A stretch of DNA of 64,000 bases from Amphirosellinia nigrospora (Eukaryota; Ascomycota; Sordariomycetes; Xylariales; Xylariaceae), in contig SCHM01000002.1 in the NCBI GenBank assembly GCA_004123355.1, positions 9,149,569 to 9,213,568 on the forward strand, read 5' to 3'. How positions within the stretch are numbered: the stretch's first letter is position 1; each line of letters begins with the position of its first letter. The notes beneath the pieces are model-generated. The model ran no database searches. It saw only the letters and a program-made list of their open reading frames with translations, and was not told the origin of the DNA. Below are positions 18,232 through 22,294 of the stretch, piece after piece. Position numbers and translations under genes: made by a program.

Positions 18232-21200
18232 ATGTCGCTTAGAGCAGTGGGTGAATCCCTATTATAACCTATGGTTTGTTGAATTGCCCCAGGATGCTAA
18301 CTATGCCAAGGTCACGGCCGCCCCGTGGGCTCGATCGCTCGGTCGAGCGGGCTATCGTATCTCGAGTCAACGCCTACTGAGCCAACGTCTTCCACGTACA
18401 TCATTCTCTCGGCACTCATACCACCGTGTGATAAGTACGACCACCGCCAATCGAGCGACGATATCAAATGACCGCGAGGCGGCATTTCCCTTTACAGACG
18501 CCCCAATTGAGGTAGGACGCCGCAGACCTTAACAGAGAAGATCGTGCAGCGACATGCTGTCGGCCTTCCAGATGGGAAGGTCGTCCGGAGCGGCGATTAC
18601 ATACAAATCCAGCCCGTGAGCAGTTCTCAAAGCCATTTACTTGTCATAATCTCAGAGCACTGCATATCGTTGCGGGACAAGAGACGCCCCAAATGGAAAT
18701 GACGATAACTGACACCGTTGTAGTACCGGTGTATGTCCCACGATAACAGTATGCCACCCTCACATTAACATAATTTTCTGCTATTTTCATTAAACCGGTG
18801 TTGATCTTAGCACAGGCATGCCTATTATGAGCAAGTACGTTTAATAGTGCCATACATATTTTATTTATATATTCATTCTGCTTACACTCTGTTATAGGTT
18901 TTCTTCCATGGGTGCTACTCGGGTCCGGGATCCAGACCAAATAGTAATTGCGCTCGATCATGACGTACAGGTCAGTCGTTGGACTCTTTCGTCCCTCTCT
19001 TTCACATGTCTCGGAAACACGAATTGCCTTAGAAGGCGTATTAGACTCCCGCAAGCTGCCGAATCCCTGAGTACTCGTTATGAGAAGTGGGAATTATTAA
19101 CTCCAATCTATATATAGAACAAGAGCGAAGCCAACCTCAGGAAGTATAAACTAATCGAGGCGTTCGCGAAGAAGCATGGGATACCTTTTTTCCCAGCAGG
19201 TGAGTATTAAAAAACCTCCCATGCCTGATCCCGTAGTCTGCTTGTTTTGTATGGCCAAGAAAGTTCTATGACGTGAGACTTAGAGATTTCGACTAACATG
19301 AACGAAAGGCCACGGAATAGGACATCAAATCATGGTAAGCGTTCATATAGTCCGAAAAACGAACTTTTTTGCATACTAAAAGCTTATTCAGATCGAAGAG
19401 CTGTTTGTCTGGCCGGGCACGATGTGTGTAGCATCAGATAGTCATGCCAATATGTATTCTGGCTTAGGATCGTTAGGAACCGCCTTAGGTACATTGTTTA
19501 GGTCCATTGAATTATCGACGCCTTCAAAAACTAATGTTTTTTTTAGTAAGGACAGACGCCGCTTCTATATGGGCTACAGGAAAGAGCTGGTTTCAAGTCC
19601 CTCCAGTTGCAAAGGTGACATTCACGGGGACGTTACCTCCTGGTGTTACGGGGTAAACCATCTCCCATCTTCCTCGCTTGTCTCCTCCTTCCCTTGCATA
19701 TTGCTAACTTCACGCGAAGAAAAGACGTTATTGTGGCACTCTGTGGACTTTTCAAGAGTGACGTACTTAATCATGCCGTCGAATTCGCGGGCTCCGAGGA
19801 AACAATGGCCAGCATTTCAGTAGATGTGCGTAATTCTCAGAGTTTTCTTCTTCCTGTTTTGGTACCTTTTTTCTGCCACCCTCACTATTCACGCTATAAA
19901 CAGGAATTACTGACTCCGAGTGTTTTAGAATAGGCTTACTATTAGCAACATGTCTACGGAATGGGGAGCACTTTCTGCAATCGCAAGTGTCCTTGGTCTA
20001 TAGGTGTCTACGTACCCACGGGCATAATCTAACTTCATATGTTCTATAGTTTCCCGTCGACCAGACTCTAGAGCGCTGGCTGCGTTATAAGGCAACGGAA
20101 GCGGCAATGCTTACAGATCGAACGACTAAAGAACGGATTACGCACGAAAAGGTGGACGAGCTCTACGCTGATCCTGTCAGAGCCGACCCCGAAGCAAAAT
20201 ATGCAAAGCAATTATTCTTGAATTTGCAATCGCTTTCGCCTTACGTTTCAGGTCCTAACTCGGTAAAAGTCTCGACACCATTGAATGAGCTAGCTCCCAA
20301 GAAAATCAAGGTAGACAGAGCATAGTAAGTAGTTTACAGCGTTATTTCGCTTTCCGATAACTTTGCGGGTATCGAGTATCCTTTCTAGATTAAATGTATG
20401 TGCTAATTGCCCCTACAGTATCGTATCTTGTACAAATAGTCGAGCGTCCGATTTAGCCGCAGCCGCCAAAGTTTTCCAGGATGCCGCAAAAGCTAATGGC
20501 GGGAAAACCCCTAAAATAGCTGAAGGCGTTAAGCTCTACATCGCGGCGGCTTCAGCGCGCGAGCAAGAGGTTGCTGAAGATCAAGGCAGCTGGCAGACTC
20601 TTGTAGAGGCTGGAAGTACGGTACTGCCAGCATCTTGCGGGCCTTGCATCGGCCTCGTACGTAGTCACTGCTCCCGTGTGGACTTTCGTTTGGAATTTAT
20701 GCTAAGTATTATACGTAGGGCACGGGCCTGCTAGAGGATGGCGAGGTGGGCATTTCTGCCAGCAACAGGAACTTTAAAGTAAGGAATTCACGGGAAATTT
20801 TCTTCGAATCCCTTATAAAGTATACTCCTAATGCAAGTAACTGACTCCAAGTGTTTTAGGGTCGGATGGGATCTCGTAAAGCGTAATTAGGGACCAATTT
20901 CTTCTACTTTTAATACCCTTCAGAAGGCGAGGTTTTCTCTTTGGCCAAGAGAGTGCCTGGAGGCTTCTGAAACCCACCAAGTCTCACTTCGAATATCATA
21001 ACTAACTCTGAGAATTGTAGACAGGCATACTTGGCGAGCCCGGAAGTAGTCGCGGCAAGCGCCCTTAGTGGCATGATCTCGGGCACAGGTGTATATAAAA
21101 CCCGGAAAACTACTCTGGTGTGGAATTTGGCTACGGCACTGGTTTACCTGTGACCACAGAAAGCGAGCTTGGTAATGTCTTGGAACAACTTGAGTCACTA

Positions 21201-22294
21201 ATTGACCGGGTCGAGTCCTCCGCAGTCGATGGCACTTCAGAAGCTACTGCTAAGACGGAGATTATTTCGGGTTTCCCCAGCAAGATAAGCGGAGAGATTG
21301 TATTCTGCGACATGGATAACTTGGACACGGTAAGAAAATCCTACTACCTGCTTTCTTGCCTCAGCAACTCGTAAAGATTCTTCGCTCTCTGGGCCAACGA
21401 AGTGCCCAGAAGCTCCTAAAAACTTCACAAATTAAGCTTAGTGTAGTGATAACTAATTTTGACTGTTCTAGGACAACATCTACCCTGGAAAATAGTGAGC
21501 AATTCTTGGAACTATTCCTACTTGTTTTGGCAGCTTTTTGAAGGCGAGGTTTCTTTCGTTGGGATAGGAGAGTGCCCAGAAGCTTCTAAAACTCTCCAAA
21601 CCAACCCCAAATGGCGATAACTGACTCCGACTGTCGTAGTACGTATCAAGATGATATCACGAAGCAAGGAATGGCCGAAGTGTGCATGTCGAACTACGAT
21701 CCTGATTTTAAGTCCATTGCTAGGCCCAATGATATCCTCGTCTCAGGGTTCAACTTTGGCTGCGTAATTCTTCCTCTCGTAATCTTATTAGAAGAAGCAA
21801 AGTCTAATCTAACATAGGGATCCTCAAGAGAGCAAGCCGCGACAGCGATTCTAGCTAAGGAAATAAACTTAGTGGTGTCGGGTTCTTTTGGCAACATTTT
21901 CTCGCGGAACAGCATCAACAATGCCCTTCTGGGGCTGGAAGTTCCTCGCCTTATTGAGCGTCTACGTACTACTTTCAACTCGGACAAAGTATTAACACGA
22001 CGACGGGGTGGACTTTGACGTGGGATGTCGCACGAAGTGTCGTCGAAGTGCAAGAGGGCGAGAGTGGGAGCGTTGGGAGGAGAAAGTTGGCGAGTTCGCA
22101 GAGAACCTGCAGTAAGTAATTCTCGGTGCCGTTTTCTTCATCTTTGGACAGCGTTGAGAGCAAAAGGCCGCTAAAAAAAACATTTATTTACAAGCAAAAT
22201 GGCCACAACTGACTCCGAGTGTTCTAGATCGATTATCGCGAAAGGTGGCTTAGAAAATTGGGTGAAGCACGAGATCGCGAAGACAGAGGCATAA
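18232..22294 (+). CDS. LYS4: Homoaconitase, mitochondrial, intron-rich
   Basis: Converts homocitrate to homoisocitrate via homoaconitate in the alpha-aminoadipate lysine pathway and carries a 4Fe-4S cluster. Landmarks are [187 protein letters not shown] and a final [20 protein letters not shown]. Introns: 18247-18292, 18616-18723, about 18750-18899, 18971-19117, 19200-19308, 19335-19391, 19499-19546, 19653-19719, 19826-19928, 19996-20049, 20325-20418, 20657-20718, 20779-20859, 20876-21020, 21330-21471, 21495-21639, 21764-21817 and 22112-22227. Exons can be tiny (16 bases at 20860-20875, 23 at 21472-21494). The WPVALKF segment normally following HDNS is not seen. One-base breaks near 18520, 20053, 21098 and 22050 look like assembly errors. 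Third positions are less GC-rich than in neighbours. Confidence 0.9.
18616..18723 (+). repeat. Introner-like intron 1 of LYS4 family
   Basis: This intron starts GTGAGCAGTTCTCAAAG and ends CGATAACTGACACCGTTGTAG. Both ends resemble those of six other introns in the same gene, including the AAATGG block before the branch site. Confidence 0.6.
19826..19928 (+). repeat. Introner-like intron 2 of LYS4 family
   Basis: Begins GTGCGTAATTCTCAGAG and ends ACTGACTCCGAGTGTTTTAG, nearly identical at the 3' end to the introns at 20779 and 22112. Confidence 0.7.
20779..20859 (+). repeat. Introner-like intron 3 of LYS4 family
   Basis: Begins GTAAGGAATTCACGGG and ends ACTGACTCCAAGTGTTTTAG. It is shorter (81 bases) and lacks the central core seen in the 142-145 base members. 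Confidence 0.7.
20876..21020 (+). repeat. Introner-like intron 4 of LYS4 family (long form)
   Basis: 145 bases. The core GAAGGCGAGG, then GAGAGTGCC and GGCTTCTGAAAC, aligns with the intron at 21495 over about 60 bases. The 3' end is TAACTAACTCTGAGAATTG plus TAG. Confidence 0.75.
21330..21471 (+). repeat. Introner-like intron 5 of LYS4 family (long form)
   Basis: 142 bases. Shares GAAGTGCCCAGAAGCTCCTA with the core of the intron at 21495, and ends GATAACTAATTTTGACTGTT plus CTAG. Confidence 0.75.
21495..21639 (+). repeat. Introner-like intron 6 of LYS4 family (long form)
   Basis: 145 bases. Begins GTGAGCAATTCTTGG, carries GAAGGCGAGG and GAGAGTGCCCAGAAGCTTCT, and ends GATAACTGACTCCGACTGTC plus GTAG. 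It is the clearest member because it contains all three shared blocks. Confidence 0.8.
22112..22227 (+). repeat. Introner-like intron 7 of LYS4 family
   Basis: Begins GTAAGTAATTCTCGG and ends ACTGACTCCGAGTGTTCTAG, preceded by AAATGGCCACA. It is the last intron before the C-terminal exon. Confidence 0.7.

What the first reader, a model, noticed from the sequence alone, without database searches (positions are those of the whole stretch)
18616..22227. Seven related introns in one homoaconitase gene: introner-like elements
Introns at 18616, 19826, 20779, 20876, 21330, 21495 and 22112 resemble each other far beyond splice-site consensus. Most 5' ends fit GTRAGYAATTCTCGG. Most 3' ends fit ACTGACTCCGAGTGTTCTAG, with the CTGAC branch site at a fixed distance. 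The three long ones (145, 142, 145 bases) also share a core around GAGAGTGCCCAGAAGCTTCT. Ordinary introns in the same gene and its neighbours lack these blocks. Related introns at different sites in one gene are the hallmark of introner-like elements, known from some Dothideomycetes and algae. This cluster would be a local burst of intron gain, with long and internally deleted forms.
Basis: partly seen in the sequence, partly recalled or inferred. Interest (0 to 1): 0.85.

Follow-up and report, generated by a model that had tools for sequence, protein, structure and literature searches.

The report
Introner-like introns in a Xylaria fungus
Seven introns in the lysine-biosynthesis gene LYS4 of a Xylaria-like fungus are copies of one intron family that has inserted itself cleanly into many genes of the genome, preferring a short target sequence, which makes it a useful case for asking how new introns arise.

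Summary
The seven LYS4 introns are real, related, and members of a genome-wide introner family. A protein-guided gene model recovers all seven; one start moves from 20876 to 20883. A family profile finds only these seven in the window at E<=0.01, and nothing in the reversed window. Full length is about 146 nt. The 3' 20-mer has 226 genome matches at up to 3 mismatches, against 11 for the reversed pattern. LYS4 insertions are seamless: no indel near the junction in 84 of 84 comparisons. Elsewhere 10 of 20 spliced products, picked by eye, have a Pfam domain across the junction.

The host is probably a Xylaria. It is not a local burst: copies in one cluster are no more alike than copies from different clusters, and one seems shared with Xylaria longipes. 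No target-site duplication was found, but insertion favours YA^TG: the downstream exon starts TG in 43 of 83 copies, background 6.3%. Sister stwintrons of the same order are reported without such bias. LYS4 itself lacks the preference (0 of 7). How the element moves is inferred.

The parts
18232..22294 (+). LYS4 (homoaconitase) gene, 19 introns in the protein-guided model; four one-base deletions against P0001 near codons 73, 529, 714, 737. Start and stop codons read by eye.
   Evidence: (TIGR00139, 1040.7 bits for the typed spliced product)
18616..18723 (+). introner copy 1, 108 nt, phase 0; lowest profile score of the seven; its X. longipes counterpart seems visible in the mis-annotated protein P0017
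   Evidence: E 1.2e-4
19826..19928 (+). introner copy 2, 103 nt, phase 0; internal deletion; 0.86 identical over 103 aligned bases to its nearest compared copy
20779..20859 (+). introner copy 3, 81 nt, phase 0; shortest, only model positions 92-146 matched by the profile
21330..21471 (+). introner copy 5, 142 nt, phase 0; profile matches from model position 24 on
21495..21639 (+). introner copy 6, 145 nt, phase 2; nearly full length and best-scoring (this copy was in the profile); 0.83 identical to its nearest compared copy
18971..19117 (+). 147-nt intron, possible decayed copy (not counted)
   Evidence: E 0.006 among 19 introns; E 0.88 in the window search

Best explanation
The seven introns are copies of one introner-like family of a Xylaria-type fungus: a spliceosomal intron of about 146 nt, with its own 5' splice site, CTGAC branch site and TAG 3' splice site, that has spread as a GT...AG unit into coding exons of many genes, mostly in sense orientation. 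Each insertion is removed by the spliceosome without changing the protein (inferred from frame and homology; no RNA evidence). Copies then decay by substitution and internal deletion. LYS4 received at least seven separate insertions at different times. Inferred, about 50% likely: the mobile form is the excised intron RNA, inserted at nicks or breaks favoured at YA^TG and copied into DNA.
For: 226 genome hits of the 3' 20-mer at <=3 mismatches against 11 for the reversed control. 40 scored BLAST matches to the 145-nt copy, 12 of them (itself included) edge to edge. 86 of 87 full-length copies read GT...AG (partly built in by the training set). The exon frame continues across the intron: with 60 nt on each side, open in 76 of 86 spliced, 5 of 86 unspliced, 48 of 86 on the other strand; with 90 nt, 60, 3 and 26 of 84. 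84 of 84 LYS4 junction comparisons without a nearby indel. 10 of 20 spliced products have a Pfam domain spanning the junction. Three LYS2 introners confirmed by protein alignment. No site-duplication signal in 55 copies. Exon flanks show little conservation beyond two bases. |TG in 43 of 83 copies, background 6.3%, p 1e-29, and in each subset by 5' splice-site type.
Against: No RNA-seq, so splicing is shown only by frame and homology. No empty site in a close relative was available. Of 86 copies, 33 have flanks open (60 nt each side) only in sense, 43 in both directions, 5 only in antisense and 5 in neither, so some copies may be antisense, in decayed genes or beside other introns. The most similar pair among the 117 compared is 93% identical, so recent activity is not shown. 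LYS4 sites themselves lack the YA^TG preference (T at +1 in 2 of 7, TG in 0 of 7; p 0.011 and 0.006). The RNA-intermediate step rests on indirect signs only, and a sequence-preferring target is not what random break repair predicts.
Confidence: 0.88

Rival explanations
1. The family is a non-autonomous DNA transposon carrying both splice sites, moved by a transposase that cuts at a roughly self-complementary YA^TG site without leaving a target-site duplication; near-terminal inverted repeats would be its ends.
For: Target preference centred on the insertion point and roughly self-complementary (C/T A ^ T G), with A at -1 and T at +1 co-occurring (Fisher p 0.009). The near-terminal segments 6-17 and 132-143 can pair, and an element's own two ends pair slightly better than ends of different elements (-11.37 against -10.29 kcal/mol).
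Against: No target-site duplication. Pairing of the termini is not clearly beyond chance (z -1.83, shuffle fraction 0.056) and shows no clear covariation. Where the two reading directions differ, flanks are open in sense in 33 copies and in antisense in 5, though selection could do this. No autonomous partner was sought.
Confidence: 0.25
2. Copies spread by DNA repair: breaks in genes are patched with sequence copied from existing introner introns, with 1-2 nt of flanking microhomology giving the A|TG bias.
For: Seamless insertions without duplication. The bias is confined to about two bases on each side.
Against: Microhomology would often extend further and vary with the donor; no position beyond +/-2 carries more than about 0.1 bit. 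Repair need not respect both intron ends, yet 86 of 87 copies found as full length do; copies lacking an end would be missed by that count.
Confidence: 0.15
3. A local burst inside LYS4: one introner duplicated within the gene.
For: Seven copies in 3.6 kb where none is found in the remaining 60 kb of the window at E<=0.01.
Against: Same-cluster copies are no more similar than copies from different clusters, and only 2 of 49 clustered elements have their nearest relative in the same cluster.
Confidence: 0.03
4. The seven introns resemble each other only through ordinary fungal splice signals.
For: All carry a GT donor, a branch-site-like motif and TAG.
Against: Homology over about 146 positions with many genomic copies; 12 other LYS4 introns do not match at E 1e-3; the reversed window gives nothing.
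Confidence: 0.01

Closest known systems
Introner-like elements of Dothideomycetes (Fulvia fulva, Dothistroma, Zymoseptoria; abstract, introduction and part 1 of 2 of the results of PMC4457414 read)
   Same: Spliceosomal introns in many similar copies in unrelated genes, sometimes two in one gene, decaying to look like regular introns.
   Different: Host is Xylariales; sequence similarity to those families was not tested; here a YA^TG preference is measured; best pair compared is 93% identical against 98-99% reported for active families.
Sister stwintrons and type-2 cropped sister introns of Hypoxylaceae/Xylariaceae (PMC8469720: abstract, first third of the results, section 3.6 and part of the legends; PMC12403724: abstract, introduction, one results section, discussion and passages)
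   Same: Same fungal order, X. longipes included; seamless insertion without duplications; near-terminal complementary segments; canonical cropped forms also spread.
   Different: LYS4 and LYS2 copies behave as single GT-AG introns and the near-terminal segments differ from the quoted NTIRE-10 sequences; those papers report no exon-border bias and, for Hypoxylon, no phase bias, whereas here |TG is found in 43 of 83 copies and phase 1 in 29 of the 49 with one open frame.
Introners of the Gozashti et al. 2022 survey (PMC9860276; abstract and the results-and-discussion section read; supplement not held)
   Same: Similarity extends to both splice sites, strong bias to genes; ascomycete families said to lack TSDs and TIRs.
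   Different: No xylarialean family is named in the main text (only a reference title names Hypoxylaceae); whether this family is in the supplement could not be checked.

Membership tests
Introner / introner-like element | Introns in unrelated genes similar over their whole length, with similarity reaching both splice sites | tested here: met
   12 of 40 BLAST matches run edge to edge, itself included; 86 of 87 profile full-length copies GT...AG; unrelated Pfam domains
Introner / introner-like element | Tens to hundreds of copies in one genome | tested here: met
   226 against 11 control hits; 114 distinct elements in the DNA held
Introner / introner-like element | Insertion at positions without an intron in relatives | tested here: inconclusive
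Introner / introner-like element | Removed by splicing in mRNA | not testable with these tools
   no RNA data; frame and homology support
DNA-transposon type introner | Target-site duplication | tested here: not met
   no coherent duplicate between the two junctions in 55 full-length copies
DNA-transposon type introner | Terminal inverted repeats | tested here: inconclusive
   near-terminal complementary segments, shuffle fraction 0.056, no clear covariation
[D1,2] sister stwintron | Donor split by an internal intron, element starting GGT | tested here: not met
   six of seven LYS4 introns do not follow a G; the seventh (21330) follows the third base of a Thr codon whose Thr is shared by all 12 relatives; single introns keep the frame in LYS4 and LYS2. 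Genome-wide G is at -1 in 21 of 83 copies, not examined one by one

The most novel reading that the evidence does not exclude
An ascomycete introner family whose insertion is guided by a specific, roughly self-complementary target (YA^TG) yet leaves no target-site duplication, pointing to an undescribed nicking or integrating activity that inserts intron RNA or its copy exactly at its splice ends, and which can pile at least seven copies into one housekeeping gene.
Probability: 0.35. Interest if true: 0.82.

Novelty: new variant of a known kind. Interest (0 to 1): 0.55.

Why it matters
How new introns arise is a long-standing question, and fungal introners are described as outliers because they lack the duplications and repeats that mark DNA transposition. 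A seamless family with a measurable target preference constrains the mechanism: it argues against purely random break repair and gives a sequence to look for in nuclease or integration assays. With at least seven copies of different divergence, LYS4 is also a natural gene for dating successive intron gains across Xylaria genomes.

Tried and rejected
Local burst: rejected by the within-cluster identity test. Pseudogene reading of LYS4: I first took a splice site as lost; the spliced alignment showed a further intron (18749-18815) instead. Four one-base deletions remain, and three frameshifts appear in the paralog model; of seven LYS2 references the two best-scoring show none and one shows one. 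Assembly error and decay cannot be told apart. RNA structure: RNAalifold gave no consensus pair, the consensus folds no better than shuffles (z -0.34), the terminal pairing does not clearly covary (the first attempt used a wrong register). Target-site duplication: none. Dependence of the target bias on profile score: none seen. A scan of 120 LYS4 relatives for leaked introner translation had no power, because P0001, which has no leak, scores 54 as P0017 does; the P0017 result rests only on the stretch where it differs from P0001. Literature searches: 'introner' (67 papers, 40 listed), 'introner'+'Xylaria' (4), 'intron gain'+'Xylariales' (9), the 11-mer CTGACTCCGAG (15, 10 listed, none about introns by title), two of 'introner-like elements'/'insertion site'/'reverse splicing' (87, 15 listed). 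A first tblastn test of the leak printed nothing for query or controls, probably for an invalid option, and was replaced. A numpy version of the aligner was written but not run; only looked for a compiler.
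Full report
What was checked. The region 18232-22294 encodes homoaconitase, LYS4 (TIGR00139, 1040.7 bits for the typed spliced product, curated cut-off 529.9). The nearest protein listed is from Xylaria longipes (P0001, 87% identity). A neighbouring sulfate-assimilation gene is nearest to Xylaria scruposa (88%), X. flabelliformis and X. castorea (86%) and X. telfairii (85%), so the host is probably a Xylaria (Sordariomycetes, Xylariales).

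Gene model. I wrote a protein-to-DNA spliced aligner and aligned P0001 to the window. Against 12 relatives, none of the 84 junction alignments has an insertion, deletion or frameshift within eight alignment steps. The insertions therefore add or remove nothing from the protein. The model also shows four one-base deletions; they may be assembly errors or real decay.

Genome-wide family. The 145-nt LYS4 copy has 40 scored matches at E<=0.001, 12 of them (itself included) edge to edge. From fetched DNA I built a profile of 48 copies of 128-158 nt (146 positions). In 111 sequences (the window and 110 loci, 358,808 bases with overlaps) it finds 87 distinct full-length copies, of which 86 read GT...AG; 64 of the 86 are 142-149 nt. 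The profile was trained on GT...AG copies, so this count is partly built in. In a second count, 114 distinct elements at E<=1e-4 lie in 288,101 unique bases; close fragments were merged, so LYS4 counted as four there. Among 26 non-best members of multi-copy clusters, 13 carry the 20-mer within 3 mismatches, so the true number may be about twice the roughly 215 net hits; this is a rough estimate from clusters only.

They sit in coding exons as introns. With 60 nt on each side, the spliced flanks have an open frame in 76 of 86 copies, the unspliced in 5, the opposite strand in 48, junctions shortened by one or two bases in 59 and 61; with 90 nt the figures are 60, 3, 26, 38 and 37 of 84. By direction (60 nt): 33 open only in sense, 43 in both, 5 only in antisense, 5 in neither. 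Of 20 spliced products scanned (picked by eye from the 45 printed, those with the longest open flanks of 86, so a favourable sample), 14 have a Pfam domain and in 10 it runs through the junction (P450, ABC transporter membrane domain, AMP-binding twice, fatty-acid desaturase, amino-acid permease, ketoacyl synthase C-terminal, S28 peptidase, AAA, MOSC). In three it starts or ends at or within three residues of the junction, in one (a LYS2 junction) it lies 37 residues downstream; six have none. In the gene at C1:608-610 kb, LYS2 by its relatives, three introners are confirmed by protein alignment and a fourth, 148-nt intron is a weak match (E 9e-4 among six introns).

Not a local burst. In an alignment of 117 elements, 48 pairs from the same cluster average 0.642 identity and 6494 pairs from different clusters 0.659 (permutation p 0.87); 2 of 49 clustered elements have their nearest relative in the same cluster; the closest pair overall is 93% identical. 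The LYS4 copies differ in divergence: their nearest compared relatives lie at 0.64 to 0.86. Clustering is nevertheless common: 20 of 88 clusters hold two or more copies within 3 kb, 18 of them all on one strand; 40 of the loci are only 621 bases long, so some neighbours were not seen.

Probably shared with X. longipes. P0017, another gene prediction for X. longipes, equals P0001 up to GDYVQIQP and then reads CLKVFETTLRAMTDSKCC, followed by residues that match an out-of-frame reading of our next exon. That peptide aligns to translations of introner copies with best score 49 (consensus 45), against a maximum of 37 and mean 26.9 for 300 shuffles. The copy at 18616 thus seems to predate the split from X. 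longipes. This is indirect: no X. longipes DNA was read.

Insertion sites. A comparison of the two junctions in 55 full-length copies shows no duplicated bases in any coherent register. The exon bases are strongly biased: among 83 copies outside LYS4, T at +1 in 63, TG at +1/+2 in 43 (background 6.3%, p 1e-29), YA|TG in 19 (background 0.9%, p 2e-21), phase 1 in 29 of 49 with a single open frame. A at -1 and T at +1 occur together more than by chance (Fisher p 0.009). The bias is present in each subset by 5' splice-site type (TG in 12 of 26, 8 of 18 and 22 of 38) and in each third by profile score. The searches used only intron sequence, so the bias is not built in. Of 12 other LYS4 introns none is followed by TG, and of 16 modelled introns in the paralog one is (several modelled paralog introns are doubtful). 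Against the reading: the seven LYS4 introners have T at +1 in 2 and TG in 0 (p 0.011 and 0.006). I have no explanation for that exception.

Ends of the element. In the fold of the consensus, positions 6-9 and 11-17 pair with 140-143 and 132-138, next to the branch site, which resembles the near-terminal repeats described in Xylariales stwintrons. The pairing is not clearly beyond chance (shuffle fraction 0.056 for the consensus; mean z -1.11 over 86 copies, below -2 in 24; own ends slightly better than swapped ends) and shows no clear covariation. I treat it as suggestive only.

Mechanism. Shown: a repeated intron unit, seamless in LYS4, no duplication, coding exons, sense orientation favoured 33 to 5 where the directions differ, biased target. 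Inferred: the mobile form is the excised intron, because exon flanks show little conservation beyond two bases and copies favour sense orientation; but selection against unspliceable insertions could give the same picture, and a DNA route with a self-complementary target is a live rival.

Relation to print. The survey PMC9860276 (results-and-discussion section read) says ascomycete introners lack TIRs and TSDs. PMC8469720 (section 3.6 and parts of results and legends read) and PMC12403724 (abstract, introduction, one results section, discussion read) report seamless sister (stw)introns in Xylariales with no exon-border bias. This family differs from them in its termini, in behaving as single introns where tested, and in having a target preference. 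I found no description of it, whose lists were partly capped; supplements and subscription papers were not searched.

Noticed in passing
window 41000-64000: Very AT-rich stretch (GC mostly 10-20%), looking like a degraded repeat isochore; not examined.
   Followed up: no
G000 C1:1479000-1482200 (L059, L063, L067): A second, diverged homoaconitase gene, only 53-59% identical to the 24 LYS4 proteins compared; no introner was seen in its modelled introns by eye.
   Followed up: partly
window 19983-20049: LYS4 intron modelled with a GC donor (GCAAGT...TAG).
   Followed up: no
window 18232-22294: Four one-base deletions in LYS4 against the X. longipes protein; assembly error or decay.
   Followed up: partly
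G000 C1:608478-610032 (L042) and window LYS4: Two lysine-pathway genes, LYS2 and LYS4, both carry several introners; may be coincidence.
   Followed up: partly
window 18616-22227: LYS4 introners lack the YA^TG preference seen elsewhere (0 of 7 TG); unexplained.
   Followed up: partly
LYS4 protein relatives: The window LYS4 is 81-84% identical to proteins from Zopfia and an Onygenales species but only 70-75% to several Xylariales (others 77-81%); patchy similarity suggests paralogy or transfer.
   Followed up: no
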